Origin: Schumannella luteola
GTDB taxonomy: Bacteria; Actinomycetota; Actinomycetes; Actinomycetales; Microbacteriaceae
Reading direction: 5' to 3'
Assembly: GCF_013408685.1 (NCBI RefSeq)
Contig: NZ_JACBZY010000001.1
Span: 1,922,001 to 1,986,000 of the forward strand
DNA length: 64,000 nt
Shown here: positions 21,283 through 42,122 of the stretch, one piece after another
Numbering within the stretch: position 1 is the stretch's first letter
Layout: the number at the start of each line of letters is the position of its first letter
Position numbers and translations under genes: made by a program
Notes under the pieces: generated by a model
What the model was told of the DNA's origin: nothing
Seen by the model: the letters and a program-made list of their open reading frames with translations, nothing else
Databases searched by the model: none

Positions 21283-21283
21283 C

Positions 21284-21811
21284 GTGGCGCGCTGGCGGGC
21301 GGCACTGCGTCGTCTGACCGCCTTCGGCATCGTCGGCGCGATCGCCTTCGTGGTGGATGCGGGACTCTTCAACCTGCTGCGCGCCACCGTGCTCGCCGAG
21401 GAGGTCGTGATCGCGAAGGTCCTCGCCGCCACGGTGTCGATCGCGGTGGCGTGGATCGGGCATCGCACGCTCGTGTTCCGCCGTCGTCGGGAGCAGTCGC
21501 TCGGCCGGGAGCTCGGCATGTTCGTGCTGGCGAACCTGGGCGGCCTGCTCATCGCCGCCGGCTGCCTCTGGGTCTCGCACGACCTGCTCGGGCTGCGCAG
21601 CGTCGTGGCCGACAACGTCGCGGGCAATCTGATCGGGGTGGCGCTCGGCACGGCGTTCCGGTTCGCGTGCTATCAGCTGATCGTGTTCCGGGCGCCCGTG
21701 TCGGCATCCGATGACAGCGGCGACGCGGCTCAGCCGAAGTCGCCGGCCGCGAAGCGCTCGGCGAATCCGCTCGCCGGCGTTCCGAGCGCGTCCGCGACCG
21801 GCGCCGACTGA
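21284..21811 (+). CDS. GtrA-family membrane protein
   Basis: 175 residues from GTG 21284, which is preceded by GGAGGT; ATG 21236 is in frame but would put the 15-bp hairpin in coding sequence. Four membrane helices: FGIVGAIAFVVDAGLFNLL, VVIAKVLAATVSIAVAWIG, LGMFVLANLGGLLIAAGCLWV and VAGNLIGVALGTAFRFACYQLIVF. This is the GtrA/DPMS flippase-like fold, linked to moving or anchoring polyprenyl-phosphate sugars. The Ala/Ser-rich C-terminal tail overlaps the convergent modC gene by 82 nt. Confidence 0.75.
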   Translation: MARWRAALRRLTAFGIVGAIAFVVDAGLFNLLRATVLAEEVVIAKVLAATVSIAVAWIGHRTLVFRRRREQSLGRELGMFVLANLGGLLIAAGCLWVSHDLLGLRSVVADNVAGNLIGVALGTAFRFACYQLIVFRAPVSASDDSGDAAQPKSPAAKRSANPLAGVPSASATGAD

Positions 21812-22458
21812 ACGACCCGGCCCACCTCCATCACCATCAGGCGCGAAGCCAGCTGCGTGACGTCGGCGCGGCTGTGCGTGATCACGATCGCCGGCCCGGC
21901 GAAACGGGTGAGGTGGTCGGTCAGCTCGTCGCGCATCGCCACCCGGGTCTCCGCATCGAGGGCTGCGAGAGGCTCGTCGAGCAGCAGCAGCTCCGGATCG
22001 CTCGCGAGAGCGCGCGCGAGCGCGACCCGCTGAGCCTGTCCGCCCGAGATCTCGTGCGGCCGGCGACCCTGTGCGCTCGCGAGCCCGACGCGATCGAGCC
22101 ATTCACGGGCGATGCCGCGCGCATCCACGCGCGTCGCCCCGCGCGCCCGCGGCCCGAAGGCCACGTTGTCGAGCAGCGTGAGGTGCGGGAACAGCAGGTA
22201 GTCCTGGAAGACGTAGCCGATGCGCCGGTCGGCGGTCGGCAGCTCCCTGCCGCTTGAGGTGTCGGCGAGAGTCCGAGCGCCCAGCTGGATGCGGCCGTCG
22301 GCGAGCGGCACGATGCCGGCGAGCGCCTGCAGCAGCGTCGATTTGCCCGCGCCATTCGGTCCGACGACGGCCAGGGTCTGGCCCGGCTCCACGGTCAGGC
22401 GCACGTCGATATCGAAGCCACCCCGGCGGGCTCCGACCTGCGCCTCGAGCGCTGTCAC
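21730..22458 (-). CDS. modC: molybdate ABC transporter ATP-binding protein, short form
   Basis: 242 residues. Walker A GPNGAGKST, Q-loop in YVFQDYLLFPHLTLLDNVAFG, signature SGGQAQRVALARAL, Walker B LLLLDEPLAAL and switch His in VITHSRADV. Full-length ModC has a C-terminal TOBE domain and about 350 residues; here it ends right after the ATPase domain, and the nearby HTH-TOBE protein may take over molybdate sensing. Start GTG 22458 overlaps the modB stop. The 3' end overlaps gtrA by 82 nt. It powers import of molybdate. Confidence 0.85.
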   Translation of the reverse strand: MTALEAQVGARRGGFDIDVRLTVEPGQTLAVVGPNGAGKSTLLQALAGIVPLADGRIQLGARTLADTSSGRELPTADRRIGYVFQDYLLFPHLTLLDNVAFGPRARGATRVDARGIAREWLDRVGLASAQGRRPHEISGGQAQRVALARALASDPELLLLDEPLAALDAETRVAMRDELTDHLTRFAGPAIVITHSRADVTQLASRLMVMEVGRVVQSAPVADALGTPASGFAERFAAGDFG

Positions 22459-23288
22459 GATGCGAGCCCCGGGATCCACCGGTCGCGCAGACTGACCAGC
22501 ACGACCAGCGACACCGCCATGAGGACGAGGGCCAGAGCGATCGCGGCATCCGGATCGGTCTGCAGCTGGAGGTAGGTCGCGAGCGGCAGCGTCTGCGTGA
22601 TGCCGGGGAAGCTGCCGGCGAAGGTCACGGTCGCCCCGAACTCGCCCAACGCCCGGGTGAAGCACAGCAGGGCGCCGGCGCTGAGTCCTGGCCAGATGAG
22701 GGGGAGCGTCACCCGGCGCAGGATCGTCCACCGGCTCGCTCCGAGCGTCGCCGCGGCGACCTCGAAGCGGCGGTCGGAGGCACCGAGGGCGCCCTCGACC
22801 GCCAGCACGAGGAACGGCATCGACACGAAGACCTGCGCGATGACGGCGGCCGCCGTCGTGAACGGGATGGTGATGCCGAACCACGAGTCGAGCAGCGATC
22901 CGAGCACCCCGCGTCGCCCCAGCAGCAGCAGCAGCGCCACACCGCCGACGACCGGCGGCAGCACGAGCGGCACCGTCACCAGGGCGCGCAGCAGACGTCG
23001 AGGAATCGAGGGCCATTTCCGGGTGCGCCCCAGCGCGAGCGCGAGCGGCACCCCGAGCAGCAGGCTGATGACCGTCGACGCCGCCGCGGTCGTGAGCGAG
23101 AGTCCGAGCGCCTGCACGACGCTCGCCTGCGCGACCACCGAGCCGAGCTCGCTCCAGGGGGCGCGCACGACGAGGGCGACGAGCGGCAGCACGAGCACCG
23201 CCAGCGCGACGAGTGCCGGGATCCAGACGACCCCGGCACTCGCCGCGCGTACCGGGCGAGGCCGGGATGCTCGCTCAGGCCGCGCCAA
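22455..23288 (-). CDS. modB: molybdate ABC transporter permease
   Basis: About 277 residues with five or six membrane helices and the permease EAA loop (EVAAATLGASRWTILRRVTLPLIWPGL); the stretch FTRALGEFGATVTFAGSFPG is typical of ModB. It forms the membrane channel with ModC. The start is uncertain: TTG 23288, overlapping modA by 14 nt, gives a sensible N-terminus, while the in-frame ATG at 23372 is deep inside modA and later GTG codons would cut the first helix. Confidence 0.82.
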   Translation of the reverse strand: MARPERASRPRPVRAASAGVVWIPALVALAVLVLPLVALVVRAPWSELGSVVAQASVVQALGLSLTTAAASTVISLLLGVPLALALGRTRKWPSIPRRLLRALVTVPLVLPPVVGGVALLLLLGRRGVLGSLLDSWFGITIPFTTAAAVIAQVFVSMPFLVLAVEGALGASDRRFEVAAATLGASRWTILRRVTLPLIWPGLSAGALLCFTRALGEFGATVTFAGSFPGITQTLPLATYLQLQTDPDAAIALALVLMAVSLVVLVSLRDRWIPGLAS

Positions 23289-24090
23289 ACCCGGCCTTCG
23301 CGAGCAGCTTCTGTCCGGCGTCCGAGAGCACCCAGTCGACGAAGGCCTTCGCGGCGTCGGGGGAGGGCGCATCCTTCAGCACGGCGATCGGGTAGTCGTT
23401 GACGGCGTCGGCGGCTTCGTCGAACGGGATGCCCTTCACGTCGGCGCCCGCCGCCAGCACGTCGGTGCGATAGACCAGGCCGGCATCCGCCTCGCCCAGG
23501 CTGACCTTGGTGAGCACCCCCTTCACATCCTGTTCCAGGGTGTCGGGGGCGGCCGTGATACCGGCCGCCTGGAAGACCTTCACCGCAGCGGCGCCGCACG
23601 GCACCTCGGGCGCGCAGATCGCGATCGTGCGGGAGGCGTCGGCGAAGTCGGCGAGCTTCGTGACCTTGCCGGGGTTGTCTTTCGGCACGGCGATCTCGAG
23701 CGTGTTCGTCGCGAAGGTCTTCGGCGCGCCCGCCGCGGCGCCGCCGTCGGTCACGGTCGTCATCGTCGCCGGGCTGGCGGCCGCGAAGACGTCGGCGGGG
23801 GCTCCGCTGAGGATCTGCTCGGCGAGGGCCGAGCTGCCGCCGAAGTTGAGCACCACCTCGACACCGGGGTGCTGCTTCTCGAAGACCGTCTTCGCCTCGC
23901 CGAAGACCTCGGTCAGCGATGCCGCGGCGAAGATCGTCACGGTTCCGCTGAGCTTCGGCTCGGTGCTCGGCGACGCAGCATCGGCTCCGGAGCCGGCGTC
24001 GCTCGAACCGGCAGCGCAGCCGGCGAGAGCGAGCGCGACAGTGGCGAGACCGGCGGCGAGAGTCCAGCGCAGGGGCCGGCGGGCGCTCAC
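23275..24090 (-). CDS. modA: molybdate-binding lipoprotein ModA
   Basis: 271 residues. Signal peptide with lipobox ALALAGCAA (Cys near 25), a Ser/Asp-rich linker and the ModA fold: VTIFAAASLTEVF at the start of the mature domain, NFGGSSALAEQI, GAPADVFAAAS and a C-terminal DWVLSDAGQKLLAKAGFG. It captures molybdate outside the membrane for ModBC. The GTG start overlaps the stop of the upstream HTH-TOBE gene, so the order is tobe-modA-modB-modC in one operon. Confidence 0.9.
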   Translation of the reverse strand: MSARRPLRWTLAAGLATVALALAGCAAGSSDAGSGADAASPSTEPKLSGTVTIFAAASLTEVFGEAKTVFEKQHPGVEVVLNFGGSSALAEQILSGAPADVFAAASPATMTTVTDGGAAAGAPKTFATNTLEIAVPKDNPGKVTKLADFADASRTIAICAPEVPCGAAAVKVFQAAGITAAPDTLEQDVKGVLTKVSLGEADAGLVYRTDVLAAGADVKGIPFDEAADAVNDYPIAVLKDAPSPDAAKAFVDWVLSDAGQKLLAKAGFGAA

Positions 24091-24518
24091 GACTCGCTCC
24101 GGCGGGCGGAGTCGGGCAGCTCGATGGCGACGTTGGTCGCCTTCACGGTGGCGACGGCGAGCGAGCCCGGCTGGAGCTCGAGCTCGTCGGCGGCCTCGCG
24201 GCTGATGAGCGACACCATGCGGAACGGCCCGGCCTGCAGCTCGACCTGCGCCATGACCGTGTCGCGCACGACCCGGGTGACGATCCCCGTGACGCGGTTG
24301 CGGGTCGACGCCTTGGCTGTCGGGAACGCTGCCCCGAGCGTCGAGGCCTCGCCGATCTCCTGCGCGACGCGGGCGAGCTCCGTTCCGGCGATGTGCTGCG
24401 GCCCGGAGCCATCGCGCTCGAGCGTGAGTCGGCCGGATTCGGCCCAGCGTCGGATCGTGTCATCGCTGACGGCGAGCAGAGCCGCCGCCTCGCTGACTCG
24501 GAACGTCGTCGTCACCAT
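24087..24518 (-). CDS. HTH-TOBE molybdate-responsive protein
   Basis: 143 residues. The N-terminal MerR/excisionase-like HTH (FRVSEAAALLAVSDDTIRRWAESGRL) is joined to a single TOBE (molybdate-binding) domain (about 72-137: RNRVTGIVTRVVRDTVMAQVELQAG...MVSLISREAADELELQPGSLAVATVKATNV). It is the first gene of the mod operon. The combination suggests a molybdate-sensing regulator in place of ModE, or a molybdate store. ATG 24518 directly follows an 11-bp inverted repeat shared with the divergent moeZ-like gene. Confidence 0.85.
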   Translation of the reverse strand: MVTTTFRVSEAAALLAVSDDTIRRWAESGRLTLERDGSGPQHIAGTELARVAQEIGEASTLGAAFPTAKASTRNRVTGIVTRVVRDTVMAQVELQAGPFRMVSLISREAADELELQPGSLAVATVKATNVAIELPDSARRSES

Positions 24519-24520
24519 CG

Positions 24521-24573
24521 GATCTCCGCATTCTCGTCGTGGTCGTCTCAAACTATCCGCGGATGCGGAGATC
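24521..24573. promoter_or_regulatory. 11-bp inverted repeat spanning the mod / Moco divergent promoters
   Basis: GATCTCCGCAT (24521-24531) and ATGCGGAGATC (24563-24573) are perfectly complementary across 31 nt. A minus-strand -10-like TAGTTT lies between them. The position suggests an operator or DNA loop for coordinated control of uptake and cofactor synthesis, probably by the HTH-TOBE protein. Confidence 0.5.
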
Positions 24574-24608
24574 GACGCGGTTCGTCCCCGGCCTGTAAGA
24601 ATTGCCGG

Positions 24609-25751
24609 ATGCGGCCGACCGGAAGCCCCGACCCCGTCTCCGGGGGCGACGACGACCGGTTCTCCCGCCAGCTCGCGCTGCCCGGATTCGACGCCGCGAC
24701 GCAGGCCCGGCTCGCCGCTGCCCGAGTGCTCGTCATCGGCGCGGGCGGTCTCGGCAGCGCCGTGCTGCCGATGCTGGCGAGCATGGGCGTCGGCGTCATC
24801 GGCGTCGTCGACGACGACCGCGTGGAGACGAGCAACCTGCATCGACAGACCCTGCATGCCCCCACCGATGTGGGCCGCGCCAAGGTCGCCTCCGCGGCCG
24901 CGACGCTGCGGTCGCTCGCTCCGACGACCGAGGTCATCGAGCATCCCGTTCGGCTCGACTCCGGCAACGCGCTCGAGATCGCCGGGGGCTACGACCTGCT
25001 CGTCGACGGCAGCGACAACTTCGCCACCCGCTACCTCGCGAACGACGTCGCCGCGCTGCTCGGCATCCCGCTGGTGTGGGGCGCCGTGTCGCAGTTCTCG
25101 GGCCAGGCCGGGTGCGTCCTCCCCGGCTCGCCCGACTACCGCGATCTCTTCCCGGTGCCGCCCGCCCCGGGCGCCGTGCCCAGCTGCGCCGACGGCGGCG
25201 TCTTCCCGGCCGTCTGCGCGATCGTGGGCGGAATCCTCGTCGGCGAGGTCGTGAAGTTGATCGGCGGTCTGGGCACCCCGCTCGTCGGGCGGGTGGCGCT
25301 CGTGGATGCGCTTGCCGGCACCGCCGATGAGGTGCGTTTCGCGCGCGACCCGGATCGTGCGCCGATCACCGGACTGATCGACTACGACGCCTTCTGCGGG
25401 CTCCCGGCGGCGGACGAACTCGTCACGCCCCGCGCCCTGCGCGACGAGCTGCGCGGCGCGACGCCGCCGCGACTGGTGGATGTGCGCGAGCCGGACGAGG
25501 TCGCGCTGGCGACGCTGGCGGGGGCGACGCTGATCCCTCTCCCGCGGCTCGAGGCGGCTGCGACGGCGACCGCGGTCATGGCCACGCCGCTCGCGCTCGA
25601 CGAGGACATCGTCGTGCTCTGCCACCACGGCGTGCGCTCGCGCTCGGCCGCGTCGACGCTGCGGGCGCTCGGGTTCACCCGGGTGCGCGAGCTGGCGGGC
25701 GGCATCGACGCCTGGGCGGCGGACGTGGACCCCGAGATGCGCAGGTACTGA
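24609..25751 (+). CDS. MoeB/ThiF adenylyltransferase with C-terminal rhodanese domain (MoeZ-like)
   Basis: 380 residues. The E1-like domain (about 15-255) has the nucleotide motif IGAGGLGSAVLPMLASMGVG and the DDDRVETSNLHRQ and SDNFATRYLAND signatures; the crossover-loop region has PSCADGG. The rhodanese domain (about 280-380) has LVDVREPDE and the loop Cys in VVLCHHGVRSRSA. It should adenylate the MoaD C-terminus and supply sulfur for molybdopterin synthase; the related actinobacterial MoeZ also serves other sulfur carriers. First gene of the plus-strand Moco operon, overlapping moeA. Confidence 0.85.
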   Translation: MRPTGSPDPVSGGDDDRFSRQLALPGFDAATQARLAAARVLVIGAGGLGSAVLPMLASMGVGVIGVVDDDRVETSNLHRQTLHAPTDVGRAKVASAAATLRSLAPTTEVIEHPVRLDSGNALEIAGGYDLLVDGSDNFATRYLANDVAALLGIPLVWGAVSQFSGQAGCVLPGSPDYRDLFPVPPAPGAVPSCADGGVFPAVCAIVGGILVGEVVKLIGGLGTPLVGRVALVDALAGTADEVRFARDPDRAPITGLIDYDAFCGLPAADELVTPRALRDELRGATPPRLVDVREPDEVALATLAGATLIPLPRLEAAATATAVMATPLALDEDIVVLCHHGVRSRSAASTLRALGFTRVRELAGGIDAWAADVDPEMRRY

Positions 25752-26980
25752 TGAGCGAACGACGCTTCTCCCGTCCCGAGCACTTCCACGTCGCCGCGCG
25801 TCCCACGGTCGCCGAGCACAAGGCCGTCATCGCGTCGCTGGTGGGGAGCGCCCTGCCCGGCGGCTCCGAGCTCGTGCCGCTCGACGAGGCTCTGGGGCGC
25901 GTCACCGCCGAACCCGTGCTGTCGCCGGTCGACCTGCCGCTGTTCCGCAACTCGCAGATGGACGGCTTCGCCGTGCGTGCCGCCGACCTCGCCGCGGCGC
26001 CGGTCACCCTGCCGGTGGCGGCGGTCGTCGCCGCGGCCGCCGGGGAGCCTCCCGTGCTGGCCCCAGGCACCGCGATCCGCATCATGACGGGCGCTCCCGT
26101 GCCGCAGGGGGCGGATGCGATCGTGCCGATCGAGCAGGTCGAGATGCGCGCCGAGGCGGTCGCGTTCGCCGTACCGGTCGCTGCGGGCGTGTTCGTGCGC
26201 GAGCGCGGCAGCGATCTCCGCGCCGGCGACCAGCTGATTCCGGCGGAGCGTCGTCTCGCATCGCGTCACCTCGCAGCGCTGGCTGCGGCCGGCATCGACG
26301 AGGTGGCCGTCCGCCCGCGCATCCGTGTCGCCGTCCTCACGACCGGCAGTGAGCTCGTCGATGTCGGCGCGGTTCCCCGCCCCGGTGAGATCCACGACGC
26401 GAACGCCGTCGCCGTCGCGGCGGCGGTGGTCGAGTGCGGAGGCGTCGTCGCGGTGCGGGGTCGGGCTCGCGACGACCGCGCGGTGTTCGACGAGCTGCTC
26501 GCCGACGCGGTGCGCGGCGCCGACCTGGTCATCACCTCGGGCGGCATCTCGCAGGGCGACTTCGAGGTGGTGCGCGAATCGCTGCTGCCGCGCGGCGGAT
26601 GGGTCGGCACGATCGCGATGCAGCCGGGCGGCCCGCAGGCGCTGGCCCTGATCGACGGGGTGCCGGTGATCGGCTTCCCCGGCAATCCGGTGAGCACGCA
26701 GCTCTCGTTCGAGGCCTTCGTGGCGCCGCTGCTGCGCGAGCATGCCGGTCTGCCGACGGCGCTGCGGGCGCGACGCCGACTGCGACGATCGATCGTCTCG
26801 CCGGCCAGGCGTCAGCAGCTGCTGCGCGCCCGATTCGTGGGTGACGACGAGGTCGAACCGGTCTCGGGGCCGGGCTCGCACCTGGTGGCGGCGCTGGCGG
26901 CAGCGGATGCGGTGATCGTCGTGCCGGCGGAGACGACGGAGCTGCCGGCGGCGGCCGAGGTGGAGGTCTGGGGACTGTGA
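25751..26980 (+). CDS. moeA: molybdopterin molybdotransferase MoeA
   Basis: 409 residues. Motifs in order: LDEALGRVTAEPVLSPVDLPLFRNSQMDGFAV, IRIMTGAPVPQGADAIVPIE, a FVRERGSDLRAGD segment, TTGSEL, GEIHDANA, TSGGISQGDFEVV and the FPGNPVSTQLSFE motif near 305-320. It inserts molybdate into adenylated molybdopterin. The ATG shares a base with the moeZ-like stop and its own stop overlaps the next GTG, so translation is coupled. Confidence 0.93.
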   Translation: MSERRFSRPEHFHVAARPTVAEHKAVIASLVGSALPGGSELVPLDEALGRVTAEPVLSPVDLPLFRNSQMDGFAVRAADLAAAPVTLPVAAVVAAAAGEPPVLAPGTAIRIMTGAPVPQGADAIVPIEQVEMRAEAVAFAVPVAAGVFVRERGSDLRAGDQLIPAERRLASRHLAALAAAGIDEVAVRPRIRVAVLTTGSELVDVGAVPRPGEIHDANAVAVAAAVVECGGVVAVRGRARDDRAVFDELLADAVRGADLVITSGGISQGDFEVVRESLLPRGGWVGTIAMQPGGPQALALIDGVPVIGFPGNPVSTQLSFEAFVAPLLREHAGLPTALRARRRLRRSIVSPARRQQLLRARFVGDDEVEPVSGPGSHLVAALAAADAVIVVPAETTELPAAAEVEVWGL

Positions 26981-28032
26981 GCGAATTGAGCCATCTGGAT
27001 GCCGACGGGCGCGCGCGCATGGTCGACGTCGGGTCGAAGCAGGTGACCGCTCGCGCCGCGACGGCGTCGGCGCGCTTCGTGACGACGACCGAGGTGCTCG
27101 ATCTGGTGCGGCGCGACGGCCTGCCCAAGGCGGACGTGCTCGCGACCGCGCGACTGGCCGGCATCGGCGGGGCGAAGCGCACGAGCGACCTCATCCCGCT
27201 GTGCCACCCGCTGCCGCTCGACTCGGTGTCGATCGACTTCGCGTTCGAGGAGCCGCCGCAGTCGGGCGACACGGCGAGCATCCTCATCACGGCGACCGCC
27301 CGGGTCACGGCGCGCACCGGCGTCGAGATGGAGGCGCTGACGGCGGTGACGGTCGCCGGACTCACCCTGCACGACATGGTCAAGGCCGCCGATCCAGCCG
27401 CGACGCTGACCGAGGTGCGGCTCGAGCACAAGACGGGCGGGCGTCACGGCGAGTGGATCCGGGATGCCGACGCCGGTGCGTCCGTCGCGGCCACCCCTGA
27501 TGAACGCTCCGCCACCGCATCCTCCGCCGACGTACCTGCCGCGGCGCGCCCCGTCGATCGCACCGCGGCAGTGATCGTGGCCTCGACCCGCGCGGCGGCG
27601 GGGGAGTCCGACGACCGCACCGGCCCGGTGCTCGCCGATTGGCTGCGCGAGCGCGGGTTCGCGATCGACGCGCCCCTCGTCGTGGCCGACGCCGATGTGG
27701 CCGGCACCCTCGACACGGTGCTCGCGGCGCGGCCGCAGGTGGTCATCACGACGGGCGGAACCGGACTCGGCCCCGGCGACCAGACGCCCGATGCGGTCGG
27801 CCCCCGGCTGCAGCGGGAGCTGCCCGGCGTGATCGAGGCGGTGCGCGCCCGCGGTCTGCTCAGCACGCCGACGGCGGCGCTCTCTCGGGGTGTCGCGGGC
27901 GTGACCGCCGGCGGCACGATCGTCGTCACCCTGCCGGGATCGACCGGGGCGGTGCGCGACGGCATCACCGTGCTCGACGGCCTGCTCGACCATCTCGTGC
28001 ATCAGCTCGCGGGGGACGCCGACCATGGCTGA
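26977..28032 (+). CDS. moaCB: MoaC-MogA/MoaB fusion (bifunctional Moco synthesis)
   Basis: 351 residues. Residues about 1-160 are MoaC (cyclic pyranopterin phosphate synthase): MVDVGSKQVTARAATASA, KRTSDLIPLCHPLPL, GVEMEALTAVTVAGLTLHDMVKA. After an Ala/Ser-rich linker, residues about 190-345 are a MogA/MoaB adenylyltransferase (TTGGTGLGPGDQTPDA, LSRGVAGV, TLPGSTGAVRDG). One chain thus carries an early and a late step. Such fusions are known in actinobacteria. It overlaps moeA and moaE. Confidence 0.9.
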   Translation: MSELSHLDADGRARMVDVGSKQVTARAATASARFVTTTEVLDLVRRDGLPKADVLATARLAGIGGAKRTSDLIPLCHPLPLDSVSIDFAFEEPPQSGDTASILITATARVTARTGVEMEALTAVTVAGLTLHDMVKAADPAATLTEVRLEHKTGGRHGEWIRDADAGASVAATPDERSATASSADVPAAARPVDRTAAVIVASTRAAAGESDDRTGPVLADWLRERGFAIDAPLVVADADVAGTLDTVLAARPQVVITTGGTGLGPGDQTPDAVGPRLQRELPGVIEAVRARGLLSTPTAALSRGVAGVTAGGTIVVTLPGSTGAVRDGITVLDGLLDHLVHQLAGDADHG

Positions 28033-28453
28033 ACCCGCGGCGTCTGCCGACCTCGACCTCATCGTCACGCGGCCCCTCGACGTCGAGGCCGTCGAGGCAC
28101 GCGTGGCCGCGCGCTCCGCCGGCGCGCTCGTGACCTTCCGCGGCGTCGTGCGCGACCACGATGGCGGGCGCGCCGTGTCCGCCCTGGAGTACGAGGCCCA
28201 TCCCGAGGCGGCGCGGTTCCTGCAGCAGGCCTGCGACACGATCGCGCAGCGCTCCGGCGTGCAGGTCGCCGCGGTGCACCGGGTCGGCGCCCTGACCGTC
28301 GGCGACGTCGCCCTGGTCGCCTGCGCGGCCTCCGCCCATCGGGCCGAGGCGTTCCGGGCCTGCGGCGAGCTGGTCGACCTGATCAAGCAGACCGTGCCGA
28401 TCTGGAAGCGCCAGACCTTCGACGACGGCGCATCCGAGTGGGTCGGGCTCTGA
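28025..28453 (+). CDS. moaE: molybdopterin synthase large subunit MoaE
   Basis: 142 residues with ALVTFRGVVRDHDGGRAVSALEYEAHPEA, the HRVGALTVGD motif, and a C-terminal AFRACGELVDLIKQTVPIWKRQ carrying the catalytic lysines. With thiocarboxylated MoaD it makes molybdopterin from cyclic pyranopterin. Its MoaD partner lies 11 kb away on the other strand. The ATG overlaps the end of the MoaC-MogA gene by 8 nt. Last gene of this operon; the convergent glycosyltransferase gene ends 2 nt later. Confidence 0.92.
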   Translation: MAEPAASADLDLIVTRPLDVEAVEARVAARSAGALVTFRGVVRDHDGGRAVSALEYEAHPEAARFLQQACDTIAQRSGVQVAAVHRVGALTVGDVALVACAASAHRAEAFRACGELVDLIKQTVPIWKRQTFDDGASEWVGL

Positions 28454-28454
28454 C

Positions 28455-34585: not shown

Positions 34586-35250
34586 CGTGACACCTCCGCC
34601 AGCAGTCGCGACATGTCGAGGATCGCGGTCGCGGTGCCGCGCACCGTGCCGGTCACCTTGGATCGGCCGACGCGGGCCGTGTAGCCGACCTCGGTCTCGG
34701 CGATGCGCCAGCCGGCTGCATGAGCCCGCAGCACCATCTCGAGCGGGTAACCGCTGCGGCGATCGAGCAGGCCGAGCTGCTGCAGCTCGCGGGTGCGGGC
34801 CATCCGCATCGGACCCAGGTCGTGGATGCGCGTGCCCGTGATGCGCGAGAGCCGCCGCGCGAGGAAGCGGTTCGCCATCCGCACATGCAGCGGCCAGTCG
34901 CCCCGGCGTGCGCGCGAACGGTGGCCGAGCACCAGATCGGCTTCGCCGGCGTCGAGCAGTTCGGCCATCGGAGGGAGCTCGGCCGGGTCGAGTGAGGCGT
35001 CAGCATCGCAGAACGCGACGAGCGGGGCGGTCGCCGCCAGCAGTCCCGCGTGGGCGGCGCTGCCGAAGCCGCGACGCGGCTCACTGATCACGAGAGCCCC
35101 GGCGGCCTCCGCCACCTCCGCCGAGCGGTCGCTCGAGCCGTTGTCGACGACGATCGCGCGGTAGCCCTCGGGCAGTCGCGCGAGCACACCGGGCAGCGCC
35201 CGCTCCTCGTCGAGGCACGGGAACACCACATCGACCTCGGCACCGCTCAC
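34582..35250 (-). CDS. family 2 glycosyltransferase
   Basis: 222 residues. GT-A fold: VDVVFPCLDEERALPGVLARLPEG, VVDNGSSDRSAEVAEAAGA and the CDADASLD metal motif; a MRMARTRELQQLGLLDRRSGYPLEM stretch near the acceptor side. No membrane anchor, so a cytosolic transferase using a nucleotide sugar, possibly onto a polyprenyl phosphate. GTG 35250 is preceded at 6 nt by TACGGT on the minus strand: a leaderless first gene of the operon GT2-DUF2064-MT. Divergent from the response-regulator gene. Confidence 0.82.
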   Translation of the reverse strand: MSGAEVDVVFPCLDEERALPGVLARLPEGYRAIVVDNGSSDRSAEVAEAAGALVISEPRRGFGSAAHAGLLAATAPLVAFCDADASLDPAELPPMAELLDAGEADLVLGHRSRARRGDWPLHVRMANRFLARRLSRITGTRIHDLGPMRMARTRELQQLGLLDRRSGYPLEMVLRAHAAGWRIAETEVGYTARVGRSKVTGTVRGTATAILDMSRLLAEVSR

Positions 35251-35256
35251 GCTCCG

Positions 35257-35419: not shown

Positions 35420-35425
35420 TAGCCT
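35420..35425 (+). promoter_or_regulatory. leaderless -10 box TAGCCT
   Basis: Ends 6 nt before GTG 35432, start of the response-regulator gene. Confidence 0.45.
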
Positions 35426-35431
35426 GAGCCC

Positions 35432-36181
35432 GTGAGCACCGACCGCCCCGCCGCCGATATCCCGCGACGGCGCGATCGACGGGTGCTGCTCGTCGAAGAC
35501 CAGCGCGAGCTCGCGGAGGTCGCCGTCGGCTACCTGCGGGCGGCGGGTCTGCTCGTCGACCACGCACCCGACGGGTTCTCGGCGCTCGCGGCGGTGGCGC
35601 GCATCCGCCCCGATCTGGTCGTGCTCGACCGGGTGATGCCGGGCATCGACGGGCTGGAGGTGTGCCGACGCCTGCGCGCCGATCCGGCGACGGCGGAGCT
35701 GCCGGTGCTGCTGCTGACCGCGATGAGCGACGAGCAGGCGCGCATCGACGGGCTCGAGGCCGGCGCCGACGACTACCTGACGAAGCCGTACTCGCCGCGC
35801 GAGCTGGTGCTGCGAGTGCAGGCGATCCTGCGCCGCACGGTCTCCGAGTTCGCACCGGAGGCGCCGATCACCCTCGGCCGGTTCCAGCTCGATCCCACGG
35901 CGCGCACGGCCCGACTGGATGGTGAGCCGCTCGAGCTGACCACGCGCGAGTTCGACCTGCTCGCCTTCTTCCTCAAGCGACCGAACCAGGTCTTCCGGCG
36001 TGACGAACTCCTTCGCGTCGTCTGGGGATGGACTCACGGCGATCTCTCCACGGTCACCGTGCACGTGCGGCGGCTGCGGGAGAAGATCGAACCGGATCCG
36101 GATTCCGCTCGGCATCTGGCCACCGTCTGGGGCGTTGGCTACCGCTTCGAGCATCCGGAGGAATCGCGTGGGACCGACTGA
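35432..36181 (+). CDS. OmpR/PhoB-family response regulator
   Basis: 249 residues. Receiver domain at about 17-130 with acidic VEDQ, phospho-acceptor Asp66 in VVLDRVMPG, Thr in LLLTAMS and Lys in YLTKPYSP. Winged-helix output domain at about 145-240 (LTTREFDLLAFFLKRPNQVFRRDELLRVVWG, STVTVHVRRLREKIEP, VWGVGYRF). Overlaps the histidine-kinase gene by 14 nt. Lying between the GT operon and the epimerase operon, it is a good candidate for the regulator of this cluster. Confidence 0.88.
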   Translation: MSTDRPAADIPRRRDRRVLLVEDQRELAEVAVGYLRAAGLLVDHAPDGFSALAAVARIRPDLVVLDRVMPGIDGLEVCRRLRADPATAELPVLLLTAMSDEQARIDGLEAGADDYLTKPYSPRELVLRVQAILRRTVSEFAPEAPITLGRFQLDPTARTARLDGEPLELTTREFDLLAFFLKRPNQVFRRDELLRVVWGWTHGDLSTVTVHVRRLREKIEPDPDSARHLATVWGVGYRFEHPEESRGTD

Positions 36182-37073
36182 GTGGATCGCCGCCGCCGTG
36201 CTCCTGGTGGCACTTGCCGTCCTCGCCGCGGTCACCGCTGCGGTGATCGCTCGGCGCGCACGAACCGCGCAGGCGGCGGCCGCCGCCGACATCGCCCGCC
36301 TCGGCCAGCAGCTGCGGCGCGAACGCGACGAGCGCGCCCGCGAAGAGCGTGTCGCCGCGTCGCGGCGTGAGCTCGCTGCGTTCATCGCGCACGACCTGCG
36401 CACCCCGCTGAGCGGGATCGTCGCGATGAGCGAGTCGCTCGTCGACGGCGTCGCTGACGATCCGCAGCGCTTTCATGGGCGCATCCACGATCTGGGTCTG
36501 CAACTCTCGGGCATGGTCGACGACCTGTTCGAACTCAGCAAGATCGAGTCCGGTTCGCTGGGGATCGCCCTCGCGCCGGTGTCGCTGGTGGAGGTGGTCA
36601 GCAATGCGGTCATGGATCACCGATCGCGCCACCTCGATCGCGAGATCCGTCTGCGGGTGCCCGAGGGCGGCGACGTGGTGGCGATGGGTGACGAGCGCGA
36701 GCTCGAGCGCGCCGTGTCGAACCTGCTGCTCAACGCGATCCAGCACAGCCCAGCGGGCGCCCCGGTCACGGTCAGCGCGGCCGTGCTCGACGGTCGGCCC
36801 GTGATCTCGGTCGTCGACGCGGGGCAGGGGATCCCCGAGTCGGAGATCGCCCGCGTCTTCGAGGCCGGGTGGCGCGGTCCCGCCGCGGAGCCGTCGCCGG
36901 TCGGCGTCGGCGCGCAGACCGGGGGAGCCGGTCTCGGCCTCGCCATCGTGCGCGGCATCGCGCGAGCGCATCACGGTGAGATCAGCGTCAGCAACGTGCC
37001 GGGCGGATGCCGATTCGAGTTGAGCCTGCCCGGTGGCGGGGCGCTGCCGGGCGCGGGCCTGTCGGCGGCCTGA
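36168..37073 (+). CDS. sensor histidine kinase with a minimal sensor
   Basis: 301 residues. One membrane helix at about 6-29 (IAAAVLLVALAVLAAVTAAVI), a basic/acidic coiled linker, then HisKA with His75 in FIAHDLRTPLSG and HATPase_c (NLLLNAIQHSP N box, DAGQGIP, GGAGLGLAIVRGIARAHHG). It lacks an extracytoplasmic sensor domain, so it may sense within the membrane or through a partner. GTG 36168 follows GGAGGA at 5 nt. Partner of the overlapping response regulator. Confidence 0.87.
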   Translation: MGPTEWIAAAVLLVALAVLAAVTAAVIARRARTAQAAAAADIARLGQQLRRERDERAREERVAASRRELAAFIAHDLRTPLSGIVAMSESLVDGVADDPQRFHGRIHDLGLQLSGMVDDLFELSKIESGSLGIALAPVSLVEVVSNAVMDHRSRHLDREIRLRVPEGGDVVAMGDERELERAVSNLLLNAIQHSPAGAPVTVSAAVLDGRPVISVVDAGQGIPESEIARVFEAGWRGPAAEPSPVGVGAQTGGAGLGLAIVRGIARAHHGEISVSNVPGGCRFELSLPGGGALPGAGLSAA

Positions 37074-37105
37074 TCGCCGGCGCCCGGATCAGGGCTCGAT
37101 CACCG

Positions 37106-38155
37106 TCACTCGCCGCGCAACGGCGCCATCGCGAACTCGCGCATGCCCTCGTCGAGGTCGCGCCGGGCACGCCAGCCGAGCTCGCGGGCGGCGCGCTCGG
37201 ACGACGCGGTGACGTGCCGCACGTCGCCGAGGCGGAACTCCCCGGTCACGATCGGGGCGTCGCCGCCGGCGTGACGCGCGAGCGCCTGGGCCATCTCGAG
37301 GATCGTCGTGACCCGGCCGCTCCCGACGTTGAAGGCCCGCACGGCGGTCGGCTGCTGCGCCTCGGTCCAGTCGAGTGCGGCGAGGTTCGCGTCGGCGACG
37401 TCGGCGACGTGGACGAAGTCGCGACGCTGCCCGCCGTCTTCGAACACGCGCGGGGTCTCGCCGCGCGCGATCGCCGAGCGGAAGAGCGAGGCGACGCCGG
37501 CGTAGGGGGTGTTCTTCGGCATCCGCGGCCCGTAGACGTTGTGATACCGCAGGGCGGCGACCCGTCCGCCGGTCTCGCGCGCCCAGGCGGCGCTGAGGTG
37601 CTCCTGGGCGAGCTTCGTGGCGGCGTAGACGTTGCGGGGGTCGAGAGCCGCGTCCTCGTCGAGCAGCTCCGGGGCGAGCACCTCTCCGGTCTCGGGGTGG
37701 CGGGGGTCGAACTGGCCGGCCTCGAGGTCGGCGACCCGGCGCGGCGCCGGCCGCACGATGCCGGTCGACCCGGAATAGGCCCCTTCGCCGTAGACGACCA
37801 TCGACGAGGCGAGCACCAGGCGGCCGACCCCGGCACGCGCGAGCGCGGCGAGCAGCTCGGCGGTCGCCAGATCGTTCGAGCCCACGTAGTCGGGCGCGTC
37901 GCCGATCTCCTTGCCGAGCCCGACCTTCGCCGCCTGATGGCAGACCGCGTCGATTCCGCGCAGGGCGCGATCGAGGGTGCTCGCATCCCCGACGTCGCCG
38001 ACGATCAGCTCGACGCCGTCCGGCACCGCGGCCGGCCCCTGATGCACGTCGCTGCGCAGCGAATCGAGCACCCGCACCTCGATACCGCGGTCGAGAGCGG
38101 CCGCGACGATGTGCGAGCCGATGAACCCGGCTCCGCCGGTGATGAGTAGGCGCAT
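37106..38155 (-). CDS. NAD-dependent sugar epimerase (dTDP-L-rhamnose 4-epimerase-like)
   Basis: 349 residues. Extended SDR with Rossmann motif ITGGAGFIG near the start, DAVCHQAAKVGLGKEIGDAPDYVGSND, active-site Ser in ASSMVVYG, Tyr-x3-Lys in YAATKLAQE, and RDFVHVADVADANLAAL. The AKVGLG and long insert before YAATK resemble dTDP-L-rhamnose 4-epimerases (dTDP-6-deoxy-L-talose formation). It would supply an unusual 6-deoxysugar donor. Its ATG overlaps the stop of the phosphorylase gene, so moaA-moaD-mtnP-epimerase appear to be transcribed together. Confidence 0.78.
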   Translation of the reverse strand: MRLLITGGAGFIGSHIVAAALDRGIEVRVLDSLRSDVHQGPAAVPDGVELIVGDVGDASTLDRALRGIDAVCHQAAKVGLGKEIGDAPDYVGSNDLATAELLAALARAGVGRLVLASSMVVYGEGAYSGSTGIVRPAPRRVADLEAGQFDPRHPETGEVLAPELLDEDAALDPRNVYAATKLAQEHLSAAWARETGGRVAALRYHNVYGPRMPKNTPYAGVASLFRSAIARGETPRVFEDGGQRRDFVHVADVADANLAALDWTEAQQPTAVRAFNVGSGRVTTILEMAQALARHAGGDAPIVTGEFRLGDVRHVTASSERAARELGWRARRDLDEGMREFAMAPLRGE

Positions 38156-38988
38156 CAGGCCGCCTCGCCGCCGGTCGCGCTCGCGACCGGACGCTCGAGC
38201 ACCCGCCGAACGGAGTCGGCGGCGATGAGCTCACGCGGGGCGAAGTCGCCGGGCACGCCGGCGACGACCCCGGCGATGATCTCGCGGATGCGGGGCAGCG
38301 CCTCGCTCAGACGCCGGAACACCAGCTCGGCGCTGACCGCATCCGGGTCGTCGGCCGAGTCGCCCGCGTCCGTGTCGGTGACGATCGCGAGCGTGACCGC
38401 TCCGATCCCCAACTCGGCCGCCAGCGCGACCTCGGGCGCAAGCGTCATGTTCAGCAGGTCGACGCCGTCGCCGCGGTACCGCGTCGACTCGGCGCGCGTC
38501 GAGAAGCGCGGGCCGGGGATGACCCCGATCGTCGCCGTCGGCCGGGCCTCCGGTGCGACCTCGAGCATGATCCGCCGCAGCACCGGATCGAAGGGGTCGG
38601 AGAACGGCAGGTGCTGCACGTCGCCCTGGTCATAGAACGTGCCGGCGCGGCCGTGCGTGTAATCGACGATCTGGTCGAGCACGGCGAGGGCGCGAGGCGG
38701 GTACTCGGCACGGATGGAGCCGACGGCGGCCGTCGAGACCAGCGCGGTGACGCCGAGCGACGCGAGCGCCCAGATGTTCGCCCGCGCGTTGATCAGGTGC
38801 GGGGCCACCGAGTGGCCGGCGCCGTGTCGCGGCAGGAACGCGACGGTGCGACCCGCGAACTCCCCGATCGACACCGGTGACGACGGCCGCCCGTAGGGGG
38901 TGTCGACCTCGCGCAGCTCGGCGCCCTCGTCGAGGAGGTCGTAGAGGCCGGAGCCGCCGATGATGCCGATCGTCGCTGCTGCGCTCAT
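38155..38988 (-). CDS. mtnP: S-methyl-5'-thioadenosine phosphorylase family protein
   Basis: 277 residues from ATG 38988. The PNP/MTAP type-2 fold: IGIIGGSGLYDLL, phosphate-binding FLPRHGAGHSVAPHLINARANIWAL, VSTAAVGS, YTHGRAGTFYD, substrate-binding LNMTLAPEVALAAELGI and TDTDAGD. It phosphorolyses methylthioadenosine; related actinobacterial enzymes may also take 5'-deoxyadenosine. Standing 67 nt after moaD-moaA, whose radical-SAM step releases 5'-deoxyadenosine, it may remove that by-product. Confidence 0.85.
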   Translation of the reverse strand: MSAAATIGIIGGSGLYDLLDEGAELREVDTPYGRPSSPVSIGEFAGRTVAFLPRHGAGHSVAPHLINARANIWALASLGVTALVSTAAVGSIRAEYPPRALAVLDQIVDYTHGRAGTFYDQGDVQHLPFSDPFDPVLRRIMLEVAPEARPTATIGVIPGPRFSTRAESTRYRGDGVDLLNMTLAPEVALAAELGIGAVTLAIVTDTDAGDSADDPDAVSAELVFRRLSEALPRIREIIAGVVAGVPGDFAPRELIAADSVRRVLERPVASATGGEAA

Positions 38989-39055
38989 GACTCGATTGTG
39001 GGGCACGTTGGCGCGCCCCGCTGTCTCAGCCACCGCTGTGTCAGCCGCGGGCGTC

Positions 39056-39304
39056 TCAGCCGCCGGCGAAGGGCGGCAGCACGTCGGCCGTCGCCCCGAG
39101 CTCGCGAGCGTCATCCCGGCTGACGACGCCGTCGATCAGCAGCGAGCCGTTCGCGAGCACGCGCTCCATCGCGGCGCCGTGACGCCGTTCCAGCTCCCGA
39201 CGCAGCTCGCCCGCCGTCGTCACCCCGGCGATGGTCTCGTCGCGACGGCCTGCTGCCTCCGCCGCGGCAGCGAAGAAGCGCACCCGCACCCCGGGCTCAG
39301 CCAC
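39056..39304 (-). CDS. moaD: molybdopterin synthase small subunit (sulfur carrier) MoaD
   Basis: 82 residues, beta-grasp: [46 protein letters not shown], and the C-terminal PPFAGG whose last Gly becomes a thiocarboxylate. It works with MoaE (28.0 kb) and the MoeZ-like enzyme (24.6 kb). The ATG overlaps the moaA stop by 8 nt. Confidence 0.92.
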
Positions 39305-40376
39305 CGATCGCGCCCATGCTCGTCAGCGGACGCACGAAGTCGGCGCGATCCATTCCGTGGCCCGGCTGCTTCACCCACATCGCGGCGCGCCAGCGGTCGG
39401 CGATCGCCTCGTCGTCGGCGCCCTCGCGCAGCAGCTCGCGCAGGTCGGTCTCGTCGTCACCGAACAGGCACGAGCGAACCGAGCCCTCCGCGGTCACCCG
39501 TGTGCGGTCGCAATCGGCGCAGAACGGGCGCGTGACCGAGGCGATGATGCCGACGGTCGCGGGGGCGCCATCCACCTCGTAGCCGCGCACGGCCCACTCC
39601 TCGGCGGGTGCGGACGGGTCGTGTCGACCGACCGGCACCAGATCGAACCGACGGCCGAGCACCTCGAGGAGGTCCTGCGCGCTCACGAGCTCGTCGCGGC
39701 TCCAGGTGCCGTCGGCGTCGAGCGGCATCTGCTCGATGAAGCGCAGCCTCGATCCGGTCGAGAGCGCCCAGGCGAGCAGATCGCCCGCCCCGGCGAGGGT
39801 GTCGCGCAGCAGCACGGCGTTGATCTTCAGCGGGGTGAGTCCCGCCTCGTGCGCGGCGCGGATGCCGGCGAGAACGGCGGGCAGCCGGTCGCGTCGTGTC
39901 AGGCGGGCGAAGTGCTCGCGATCGATCGTGTCGAGCGAGATGTTGATGCGGGTGAGTCCCGCGTCGCGCAGGGCGCGGACGCGCTTGTCGAGGCCGATGC
40001 CGTTGGTCGTGAGCGAGAGCGGGACGCCGTCGGCCTCGTGGGCGCTGCGCCGGATGATCTCGGCGAGATCGGCGCGCAGCAGCGGCTCGCCGCCGGTGAA
40101 GCGGATGTCGCGGATGCCCAGCTCGCGCACCCCGATGCCGACGAGCCGGGCGATCTCGGGCGGGGTCAGCAGCCGCTCACGCGGGATCGCGGGGAGCCCC
40201 TCAGCCGGCATGCAGTAGACGCAGCGCAGCGAGCACTTCTCCGTCAGTGAGATGCGCAGATCGCGGGCCACGCGGCCGAAGCTGTCGACCAGGTCCGGCG
40301 TCGCGGGCCGTTCGTCGCCGGCGGCGGGGGAGCCCGCGCGGCGCACCCGCGGCATCCCCAGTGTCAGAGCGACCAT
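39297..40376 (-). CDS. moaA: GTP 3',8-cyclase MoaA (radical SAM)
   Basis: 359 residues. N-terminal Fe-S motif [31 protein letters not shown], and the C-terminal cluster CADCDRTRV...CLFG. The last residues MGAIGG include the C-terminal GG needed for activity. It carries out the first step of Moco synthesis, releasing 5'-deoxyadenosine. Start ATG 40376 is preferred over 40415 because TACGGT (40383-40388, minus strand) ends 6 nt before it: a leaderless promoter. Confidence 0.93.
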
Positions 40377-40382
40377 GTGCCC

Positions 40383-40388
40383 ACCGTA
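40383..40388 (-). promoter_or_regulatory. leaderless -10 box TACGGT of moaA (minus strand)
   Basis: 6 nt before ATG 40376; sets the moaA start 13 codons inside the longest reading. Confidence 0.45.
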
Positions 40389-40536
40389 GGCGGCGGGCGA
40401 ACGCGATGTCGTCATCCATCGGATGCTGTGCGCCGCCTGTACGCAATGTCACGAAAAGGTCACGGACCGATCCCTTTCGATCCTGCTCCCGAACCCATGT
40501 CACCAACCGGGAAACACCGACCAAGGGAACGGATAC

Positions 40537-41232: not shown

Positions 41233-41272
41233 CGACAGCGGAACCGACGAACGTCGGACCGCATCCCGGTAG

Positions 41273-41304
41273 AGCCCGCCGTGCACCCGCACGGCGGGCT
41301 TTTC
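41273..41304 (+). terminator. rho-independent terminator of the lipoprotein gene
   Basis: GCCCGCCGTG (41274-41283), 6-nt loop, CACGGCGGGC (41290-41299), then TTTT. The flanking A-T pair extends the stem to 11 bp. This is the most classical terminator in the window. Confidence 0.85.
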
Positions 41305-41324
41305 CGCATTCAGAGAGGCATCAC

Positions 41325-42122
41325 ATGTCCCGGACCCTGGTGATCGTGCCGACCTACGACGAGCGGGAGAGTCTGCCGGTCACGCTCCGGCAGCTGCTGA
41401 AGCTCGACCGCGAGTTCGACATCCTCGTCGTCGACGACGACTCGCCCGACGGCACCGGCGCACTCGCTGAGCGGCACGCGACCGACTCGTCGCGCATCCA
41501 CGTGCTGCACCACGGTGCGCGGCGCGGTCTCGGTGCGGCCTACGTCGCCGGCTTCGGCTGGGGACTGGATCGCGGCTACGACCGTCTCGTCCAGATGGAC
41601 GCCGACGGATCGCACCGCCCCGCCGATCTCCCGCGCCTGCTCGACGAGCTCGACGCGGGGCACGATCTCGCGGTGGGGTCCCGGTGGGTGCCGGGTGGCC
41701 GTGTCGAGAACTGGCCGCTGGCGCGCCGACTGCTGAGCCGCGCGGGGAGCGCCTATGCGCGTCTACTGCTCGGACTGCCCGTGCGCGACGTCACCGGCGG
41801 CTACCGGGCCTTCACGGCGTCGGTGCTGCACCGGGTCGAGTTGGGGTCGGTGACCAGCCGCGGCTACTGCTTCCAGATCGACCTGCTGCGCCGGGCGGTG
41901 CGCGCGCAGGCCGACATCGCCGAGGTGCCGATCGTGTTCCGCCAGCGCACCGCGGGCCGGTCGAAGATGAGCTCGTCGATCGTCGCCGAGGCACTCGTCC
42001 AGGTGACCCGGTGGGCCGTGCGCGACCGCCCTCGGCGTCGCGGGCTCGATCGCGTGTCGCGGCGTCACACCGCGACGCCGCGGAAGGCGACGGCAGGCCG
42101 CGTCCCTAGGCTGGGGGAGTGA
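41325..42122 (+). CDS. polyprenol-phosphate mannose synthase (GT2, DPM1-like)
   Basis: 265 residues. LVIVPTYDERESLPVTLRQLLKL, VVDDDSPDGTGALAE, the metal-binding MDADGSHRPADLPRLL, GSRWVPGGRVENWPLARRLLSRAGSAYARLLLGLPVRDVTGGYRAF are diagnostic of DPM synthases. It transfers mannose from GDP-mannose to polyprenyl phosphate on the inner membrane face; the product feeds C-type and GT87 mannosyltransferases. The C-terminus is basic, with no membrane helix. It shares bases with the next GTG start. Confidence 0.9.
   Translation: MSRTLVIVPTYDERESLPVTLRQLLKLDREFDILVVDDDSPDGTGALAERHATDSSRIHVLHHGARRGLGAAYVAGFGWGLDRGYDRLVQMDADGSHRPADLPRLLDELDAGHDLAVGSRWVPGGRVENWPLARRLLSRAGSAYARLLLGLPVRDVTGGYRAFTASVLHRVELGSVTSRGYCFQIDLLRRAVRAQADIAEVPIVFRQRTAGRSKMSSSIVAEALVQVTRWAVRDRPRRRGLDRVSRRHTATPRKATAGRVPRLGE
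42107..42112 (+). promoter_or_regulatory. leaderless -10 box TAGGCT
   Basis: 6 nt before GTG 42119. The GGGGGA between could also serve as Shine-Dalgarno on a longer transcript. Confidence 0.45.

What the first reader, a model, noticed from the sequence alone, without database searches (positions are those of the whole stretch)
21730..42122. Moco genes bracket a glycosyltransferase cluster built around one membrane molybdoenzyme
Molybdate uptake and Moco synthesis genes lie on both sides (mod-HTH/TOBE, moeZ-like, moeA, moaC-mogA, moaE on the left; moaD, moaA on the right). Between them the only visible molybdoenzyme, a SUOX-fold domain on a b-type membrane segment with Cys290, is surrounded by two polytopic lipid-sugar-dependent GTs, a small membrane protein, a SAM methyltransferase, a DUF2064 transferase, a GT2, a two-component system and a dTDP-sugar epimerase. 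DPM synthase follows at 41.3 kb. I infer a dedicated pathway: an extracytoplasmic glycoconjugate or glycolipid modified by a Mo-dependent redox reaction. The families are known; the assembled pathway and its product are, as far as I know, not described.
Basis: partly seen in the sequence, partly recalled or inferred. Interest (0 to 1): 0.75.

Follow-up and report, generated by a model that had tools for sequence, protein, structure and literature searches.

The report
Molybdoenzyme tied to methylthio-sugar pathway
The molybdenum enzyme in this soil-bacterium genome sits in, and is inherited together with, a gene set matching the one tuberculosis bacteria use to put a rare sulfur-containing sugar on their surface, so it most likely oxidises or reduces that sugar's sulfur, a job for which no envelope enzyme was known.

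Summary
One molybdoenzyme gene (b-heme membrane domain fused to a SUOX-fold domain, 31619-32785) lies among GT-C, methyltransferase, DUF2064, GT2, two-component and epimerase genes, with Moco genes on both sides. No other molybdoenzyme of three families searched is in the genome. The association is real: 41 of 150 Microbacteriaceae genomes have the enzyme, and exactly the same 41 have a true DUF2064; across the phylum all 32 enzyme-positive genomes have DUF2064, 27 on one contig within 12 kb. MTAP-epimerase-GT2-DUF2064 plus a GT-C is the mycobacterial methylthioxylose (MTX) pathway (MtxS Rv0539, MtxT Rv0541c). Two mycobacterial genomes carry the whole set, molybdoenzyme included; two split it into Rv0535-0541c-like and Rv0218-like blocks. 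The enzyme belongs to the dual Sec/Tat Sco3746 family (function unknown) with an MsrP-like CVEGWS motif. Best reading: a respiratory extracytoplasmic redox enzyme for the methylthio/methylsulfinyl sugar. Substrate and direction are inferred, not shown. In most Microbacteriaceae MtxT is replaced by a GT87 enzyme. New variant of a known kind.

The parts
21730..24090 (-). molybdate-type ABC transporter (binding protein, permease, ATPase)
   Evidence: Pfam SBP_bac_11, BPD_transp_1, ABC_tran; homologues beside the enzyme in many relatives
24393..25751 (+). ThiF-rhodanese (MoeZ-like)
   Evidence: Pfam ThiF 3e-63, Rhodanese
25751..28453 (+). moeA, moaC-mogA fusion, moaE: Moco synthesis
   Evidence: Pfam
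28455..30059 (-). GT-C B: polytopic mannosyltransferase-like (PMT_2, MT1671-like)
   Evidence: Pfam PMT_2, NCBIfam NF052499 below cut-off
30062..31507 (-). GT-C A: GT87 polyprenyl-P-sugar transferase type; takes the place of the MtxT-type GT-C found in other lineages
   Evidence: Pfam GT87 3e-15; 39 loci with it, 19 with MtxT-type, none with both
31619..32785 (+). membrane molybdoenzyme, Sco3746 family: 4-TM b-type cytochrome domain, internal twin-arginine (R194 R195) before TM5, SUOX-fold domain with Cys290 in CVEGWS
   Evidence: family description in PMC5449189
32782..33297 (+). small 4-TM protein next to the enzyme in all Microbacteriaceae loci (probable partner)
   Evidence: 47 of 47 loci
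33195..33929 (-). class I SAM methyltransferase (role unknown); its C-terminal tail overlaps the 4-TM gene on the other strand
   Evidence: Pfam Methyltransf_23/11; conserved beside the enzyme or DUF2064
33926..34585 (-). DUF2064/TIGR04282 nucleotidyltransferase-fold protein (predicted sugar-1-P nucleotidyltransferase)
   Evidence: model pLDDT 96 matches 3cgx, FbiD, KdsB, GlmU
34582..35250 (-). GT2, polyprenyl-phosphate-sugar synthase type (MtxS position)
35432..37073 (+). OmpR-type response regulator and histidine kinase
   Evidence: conserved in a subset of clusters
37106..38155 (-). GalE-like NAD-dependent epimerase
38155..39114 (-).
39056..40415 (-). moaD and moaA
   Evidence: Pfam ThiS, Radical_SAM, Mob_synth_C

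Best explanation
The cluster makes a methylthio-pentose of the methylthioxylose (MTX) type, puts it on an envelope glycan, and controls the oxidation state of its sulfur with a dedicated molybdoenzyme. Proposed steps: (1) MTAP splits 5'-methylthioadenosine into adenine and 5-methylthioribose-1-phosphate; (2) the DUF2064 protein, a CofC/KdsB-type nucleotidyltransferase, activates it; (3) the GalE-like epimerase changes one hydroxyl (ribo to xylo, if the product equals MTX); (4) the GT2 (MtxS position) loads it on polyprenyl phosphate; (5) after flipping, a GT-C enzyme (MtxT in mycobacteria, a GT87 enzyme here) transfers it to an envelope glycan; (6) the Sco3746-family enzyme, whose Mo domain is exported by Tat and whose b-hemes reach the quinone pool, interconverts methylthio and methylsulfinyl sugar, more likely reducing the sulfoxide (MsrP-like) than forming it. 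Shown here: genes, co-occurrence, synteny, fold, conserved residues. Known in M. tuberculosis from the literature: MTA as source, MtxS, MtxT, presence of MTX and its sulfoxide on LAM. Inferred: steps 2, 3 and 6, the identity of the sugar and the acceptor in this organism.
For: Identical 41/150 presence sets for enzyme and true DUF2064 in Microbacteriaceae; MTAP in 33 of those 41 and 0 of 109 others; phylum sample 32/32 with DUF2064, 27 on one contig within 12 kb. Full cluster enzyme-4TM-MT-DUF2064-GT2-RR-HK-epimerase-MTAP in two mycobacterial genomes (L119, L120); MTX-type block plus separate enzyme block in two others of the genus (L121/L122, L123/L124), one with a PE_PGRS gene. MtxT-type GT-C adjoins the cluster in these, in a large-genome group and in deeper lineages, mutually exclusive with the GT87 GT-C. 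Literature: MtxS=Rv0539, MtxT=Rv0541c (PMC8780516); donor MTA (PMC11127046); MSX abundant on LAM (PMC8531672); MSX is a substrate of Mtb MsrA (Stalford 2009, reference in PMC5911930). Active-site motif CVEGWS matches MsrP CVEAWS, not sulfite oxidase CAGNRRS. Sec/Tat topology and two b-hemes of the family: PMC5449189. DUF2064 fold. No arsenosugar radical-SAM gene in the genome.
Against: No biochemistry; I know of no report of the sugar in any Microbacteriaceae. Eight of 41 cluster-positive genomes have no MTAP match above threshold, and five of these clusters also lack the adjacent methyltransferase, so the core can persist without them. In the large-genome (Streptomyces-like) group MTAP is not beside the cluster, and MTAP is common in the phylum (192/296), so it discriminates weakly there. 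The terminal GT-C here is not MtxT. Overall fold scores favour sulfite oxidases over MsrP. The methyltransferase and 4-TM protein have no clear role. Rv numbers of the neighbours rest on synteny recalled from memory plus domain checks.
Confidence: 0.58

Rival explanations
1. The cluster makes the methylthio-sugar glycan, but the molybdoenzyme oxidises the thioether to the sulfoxide (electrons to quinone) rather than reducing it: an MTX S-oxidase that produces MSX.
For: MSX is abundant on LAM in all strains tested (PMC8531672); the Mo-domain fold scores best against sulfite oxidases, which oxidise sulfur; dedicated Moco supply fits a biosynthetic step.
Against: The motif next to the active-site Cys is MsrP-like; sulfoxides also form spontaneously with oxidants, so an oxidase is less needed than a reductase.
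Confidence: 0.22
2. The enzyme is a general envelope repair enzyme (MsrPQ-like methionine sulfoxide reductase) whose gene merely travels with the sugar genes.
For: Family noted as a distant homologue of MsrP/MsrQ (PMC5449189); motif similarity.
Against: Presence is perfectly tied to DUF2064 in the family sample and fully nested in it in the phylum sample, and co-occurrence persists when the loci are unlinked. A general repair enzyme should occur without the sugar genes.
Confidence: 0.12
3. The cluster makes a different 5-modified pentose or other sugar (for example arsenosugar-like), MTAP acting as a broader nucleoside phosphorylase.
For: DUF2064 and GT2 match models named for arsenosugar biosynthesis; some clusters lack MTAP.
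Against: The arsenosugar radical-SAM gene is absent; the DUF2064 hit is below that model's cut-off; homologous mycobacterial genes make MTX.
Confidence: 0.2
4. Coincidental neighbourhood: housekeeping Moco, mannosyltransferase and methionine-salvage genes that happen to be adjacent.
For: Flanking genes such as DPM synthase and the phosphate block are not part of the conserved set.
Against: Order conserved across families and co-inheritance across 150 and 296 genomes, also where the blocks are unlinked.
Confidence: 0.02

Closest known systems
Mycobacterial methylthioxylose (MTX) capping pathway of lipoarabinomannan: MtxS (Rv0539), MtxT (Rv0541c) with neighbours Rv0535 (MTAP), Rv0536, Rv0540 (neighbour numbers from memory)
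   Same: MTAP, GalE-like epimerase, GT2 and DUF2064 homologues together; a GT-C transferase beside them
   Different: Here the terminal GT-C is GT87 rather than MtxT; a molybdoenzyme, 4-TM protein, methyltransferase and two-component system are integrated; acceptor and product unknown; no LAM known to me in this group
Sco3746 family of dual Sec/Tat-targeted MoCo/heme-b membrane proteins (Tooke 2017, PMC5449189)
   Same: Architecture, conserved TM histidines, internal twin-arginine before TM5, C-terminal Mo domain
   Different: Nothing tested differs; the published family has no assigned function or pathway, which is what is added here
MsrP/MsrQ (YedY/YedZ) methionine sulfoxide reductase
   Same: SUOX fold, CVE[AG]WS motif, heme-b membrane partner; thioether/sulfoxide chemistry proposed
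   Different: Single fused polypeptide; only about 20% identity in the fold match; linked to a sugar pathway instead of protein repair
Arsenosugar biosynthesis glycosyltransferases TIGR04282/TIGR04283
   Same: DUF2064 matches TIGR04282 best; GT2 matches TIGR04283 among others
   Different: Both below cut-off; the radical-SAM partner is absent

Membership tests
Sco3746 family (dual Sec/Tat MoCo-heme b) | Four Sec TM helices plus a fifth preceded by a conserved twin-arginine motif | tested here: met
   RR invariant in the 20-sequence alignment and present in nearly all of about 64 homologues; helices in the model; description in PMC5449189
Sco3746 family (dual Sec/Tat MoCo-heme b) | Conserved TM histidines for two b-hemes | tested here: met
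   H80, H152, H166 invariant; b-type cytochrome fold matches for residues 29-182
Sco3746 family (dual Sec/Tat MoCo-heme b) | C-terminal SUOX-fold Mo domain with invariant Cys | tested here: met
   Oxidored_molyb 4e-24; C290 invariant; Z 18 to sulfite oxidase
MsrP (methionine sulfoxide reductase) | Match to the curated MsrP model | tested here: not met
   NF003767 26.4 bits against cut-off 207
MsrP (methionine sulfoxide reductase) | CVEAWS-type motif at the active-site Cys | tested here: met
   CVEGWS in about 60 of 64 homologues; E. coli MsrP CVEAWS
Sulfite oxidase/dehydrogenase | Cys followed by the NRR-type sulfite-binding motif | tested here: not met
   Chicken enzyme CAGNRRS versus CVEGWS; SorA, SorT, SoxC models far below cut-off
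MTX pathway | MTAP plus epimerase plus GT2 plus DUF2064 block | tested here: met
   MTAP co-inheritance
MTX pathway | MtxT-type GT-C (Rv0541c homologue) | tested here: not met
   No MtxT-type hit in the window; GT87 instead. Five other Microbacteriaceae loci do have the MtxT type
MTX pathway | Methylthio-pentose on a surface glycan | not testable with these tools
   needs glycan mass spectrometry or NMR
Arsenosugar biosynthesis | ArsS radical-SAM enzyme in the genome | tested here: not met
   TIGR04167 absent

The most novel reading that the evidence does not exclude
Sco3746-family molybdoenzymes, including M. tuberculosis Rv0218, are dedicated envelope enzymes that set the redox state of the sulfur in methylthio-pentose glycan caps: a molybdoenzyme acting on a carbohydrate thioether/sulfoxide, powering a renewable surface antioxidant from the respiratory chain across Actinomycetota.
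Probability: 0.45. Interest if true: 0.87.

Novelty: new variant of a known kind. Interest (0 to 1): 0.72.

Why it matters
Methylthioxylose and its sulfoxide are known decorations of tuberculosis LAM, used in diagnostics and proposed to be antioxidant, but no envelope enzyme controlling their redox state was known to me, and a 2024 paper called it unclear whether the modification exists outside LAM (PMC11127046). This locus gives a testable candidate enzyme, shows that the gene set is widespread in Actinomycetota including groups where LAM is not known to me, and offers a function for a molybdoenzyme family of unknown role, and through it for Rv0218, a gene linked to meningeal tuberculosis and reported as needed for growth in mouse spleen (PMC5800017). 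It also suggests a reason for keeping the whole Moco pathway in a genome whose only detected molybdoenzyme is this one.

Tried and rejected
Arsenosugar pathway: suggested by the TIGR04282/04283 names, rejected because ArsS is absent. Membership in sulfite oxidase, SoxC or MsrP proper: scores far below cut-offs. DPM synthase and GtrA as cluster members: found at full strength only in the nearest relatives. Homology of the window's GT-Cs to MtxT: no convincing profile match. phmmer with the active-site fragment to align MsrP from the PDB gave nothing; E. coli MsrP was read directly instead. The main paper on MtxS/MtxT is not in the library, so it is cited through later papers. A literature search for lipoglycans of Microbacteriaceae gave nothing usable, nor did one for arsenosugar enzymology. 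What replaces MTAP in MTAP-negative clusters was looked for in five of them and not found.
Full report
Observation. Two corrections: the gene at 38155-39114 is a 5'-methylthioadenosine phosphorylase (best models: MTAP, E = 5e-78 and 3e-71, somewhat below curated cut-offs), and the epimerase is GalE-like rather than specifically a dTDP-sugar enzyme. moaD is a small ORF at 39056-39304 just beside moaA. The genome (one contig, 3.75 Mb; nearest named relative Schumannella soli, 96% identity in the enzyme) has a single SUOX domain and no member of the PF00384 or PF02738 molybdoenzyme families. So, of the families searched, the Moco genes serve this one enzyme.

Is the neighbourhood meaningful? In 150 Microbacteriaceae genomes the full-length enzyme occurs in 41. 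Strong DUF2064 matches (E below 1e-12) occur in exactly the same 41. Within genera both are present or absent together (g1, g9 and g17 each contain genomes with both and genomes with neither). MTAP (E below 1e-30) occurs in 33 of the 41 and in none of the other 109. In 296 genomes sampled across the phylum the enzyme occurs in 32; all 32 have DUF2064; in 27 both are on one contig at 1-12 kb. Fisher tests ignore relatedness but are extreme.

Conserved arrangement. In 47 loci (46 relatives and the window) the 4-TM protein is beside the enzyme in all, GT2 and DUF2064 in 39, epimerase in 35, methyltransferase in 34, MTAP in 29. Where the sugar genes are not beside the enzyme (Curtobacterium-like genomes) they form a separate MTAP-epimerase-GT2-DUF2064-methyltransferase block, and that block lies beside moeA, moaC/mog and moaE, while the enzyme lies beside modABC and moaA. 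The coupling to Moco supply therefore survives the split.

Link to the mycobacterial methylthioxylose pathway. Four genomes of one genus of the class were examined. L119 and L120 contain the complete cluster: MtxT-type GT-C, enzyme, 4-TM, methyltransferase, DUF2064, GT2, response regulator, kinase, epimerase, MTAP. L121 and L123 contain MTAP-epimerase-(DUF7937 protein)-GT2-DUF2064-(GT-C); L121 is flanked by UbiA (menA-like), PHO4 and enoyl-CoA hydratase (menB-like) genes. In these two genomes the enzyme lies elsewhere, with the methyltransferase, near an esterase and a WS/DGAT gene (L122, L124). A PE_PGRS gene in L124 marks that genome as a mycobacterium. From memory this is the order of M. 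tuberculosis Rv0534c-Rv0548c and Rv0217c-Rv0221. The enzymes of the linked and unlinked mycobacterial loci form one well-supported clade. In M. tuberculosis Rv0539 (MtxS) makes decaprenyl-phosphate-MTX and Rv0541c (MtxT) transfers MTX to the mannose caps of LAM (PMC8780516); the source is 5'-methylthioadenosine, and whether the modification exists outside LAM was unclear in 2024 (PMC11127046).

GT-C exchange. In most other Microbacteriaceae and one large-genome locus a GT87 GT-C is in its place. Of 63 enzyme-bearing loci (window not counted), 39 have GT87, 19 the MtxT type, 5 neither, none both. The two families share no detectable profile similarity. This looks like replacement of the last transferase, possibly with a change of acceptor.

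The molybdoenzyme. The 388-residue protein has four TM helices with invariant histidines (80, 152, 166), a fifth hydrophobic segment preceded by an invariant RR pair, and a SUOX-fold domain with invariant Cys290. It matches the Sco3746 family, shown experimentally (for Sco3746 TM fusions) to need both Sec and Tat and to place the C-terminal domain outside; its function was not assigned (PMC5449189). The model (pLDDT 77, low at the active-site loop) matches sulfite oxidases best (Z 18) and MsrP (Z 14), and the membrane part matches b-type cytochromes such as superoxide oxidase. At the cofactor Cys the family reads CVEGWS, as E. coli MsrP CVEAWS and unlike chicken sulfite oxidase CAGNRRS. The chemistry most consistent with this is thioether/sulfoxide interconversion.

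Mechanism. MTX carries a thioether, and its sulfoxide (MSX) was found abundantly in LAM of all M. tuberculosis strains studied (PMC8531672). MSX is a substrate of the M. tuberculosis MsrA (title of Stalford 2009, cited in PMC5911930), but MsrA is, to my knowledge, cytosolic. An extracytoplasmic, quinone-linked MsrP-like enzyme co-inherited with MTX synthesis genes is the natural candidate for MTX/MSX interconversion. I favour reduction about two to one over oxidation. DUF2064 has a nucleotidyltransferase fold (pLDDT 96; best matches 3cgx, 2i5e, FbiD Rv2983, KdsB, GlmU), fitting activation of methylthioribose-1-phosphate.

Limits. The sugar has not, to my knowledge, been observed in this group. 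Eight cluster-positive family genomes have no MTAP above threshold; five of those clusters also lack the methyltransferase, leaving epimerase-GT2-DUF2064-enzyme-4TM (plus a GT87 GT-C in three of them) as core. MTAP is common in the phylum and only moderately enriched there (30 of 32 versus 162 of 264). The methyltransferase, the 4-TM protein and the two-component system have no assigned role. Significance values are not corrected for phylogeny.

Novelty. Both halves were known separately: the MTX pathway in M. tuberculosis and the Sco3746 family as a model of protein targeting. Their coupling, its spread through Actinomycetota, the swap of the final transferase and the resulting function for Rv0218-type enzymes are, as far as I could find, not described. 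Rv0218 has been associated with meningeal tuberculosis and reported as needed for growth in mouse spleen (PMC5800017).

Noticed in passing
window 40519-41229 (+) and homologues in 26 loci: A lipoprotein (lipobox LAAC) with no Pfam match lies within a few kb of the enzyme in about half of the Microbacteriaceae loci, all with the GT87 GT-C or with neither GT-C type. Possibly a further component or the acceptor.
   Followed up: partly
L040, L041, L042, L046, L049: The adjacent methyltransferase and MTAP are missing together, leaving a smaller core cluster; no obvious replacement gene beside it.
   Followed up: partly
L143, L144 (Curtobacterium-like genomes): The sugar block MTAP-epimerase-GT2-DUF2064-methyltransferase sits directly beside moeA, moaC/mog and moaE although the molybdoenzyme is on another contig.
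   Followed up: yes
L122, L124 versus L119, L120: Within one mycobacterial genus the molybdoenzyme is inside the methylthioxylose cluster in some species and at an Rv0218-like locus in others; all four enzymes form one clade.
   Followed up: yes
window 31619-32785: The enzyme here has a much shorter linker between the membrane and Mo domains (388 aa in all) than most relatives (about 400-490 aa).
   Followed up: no
window 19538-21811: ECF sigma factor, RskA-type anti-sigma factor and a GtrA-type membrane protein directly left of the molybdate transporter; GtrA found only in the loci of the nearest relatives.
   Followed up: no
window 43509-51630: Phosphate-type ABC transporter genes and a polyphosphate kinase right of the cluster; ordinary phosphate block.
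   Followed up: no
G360 contig 242: A second MTAP gene lies about 0.5 kb from the enzyme in a deep-branching genome that has another MTAP elsewhere, an independent hint that a dedicated MTAP belongs to the cluster.
   Followed up: partly
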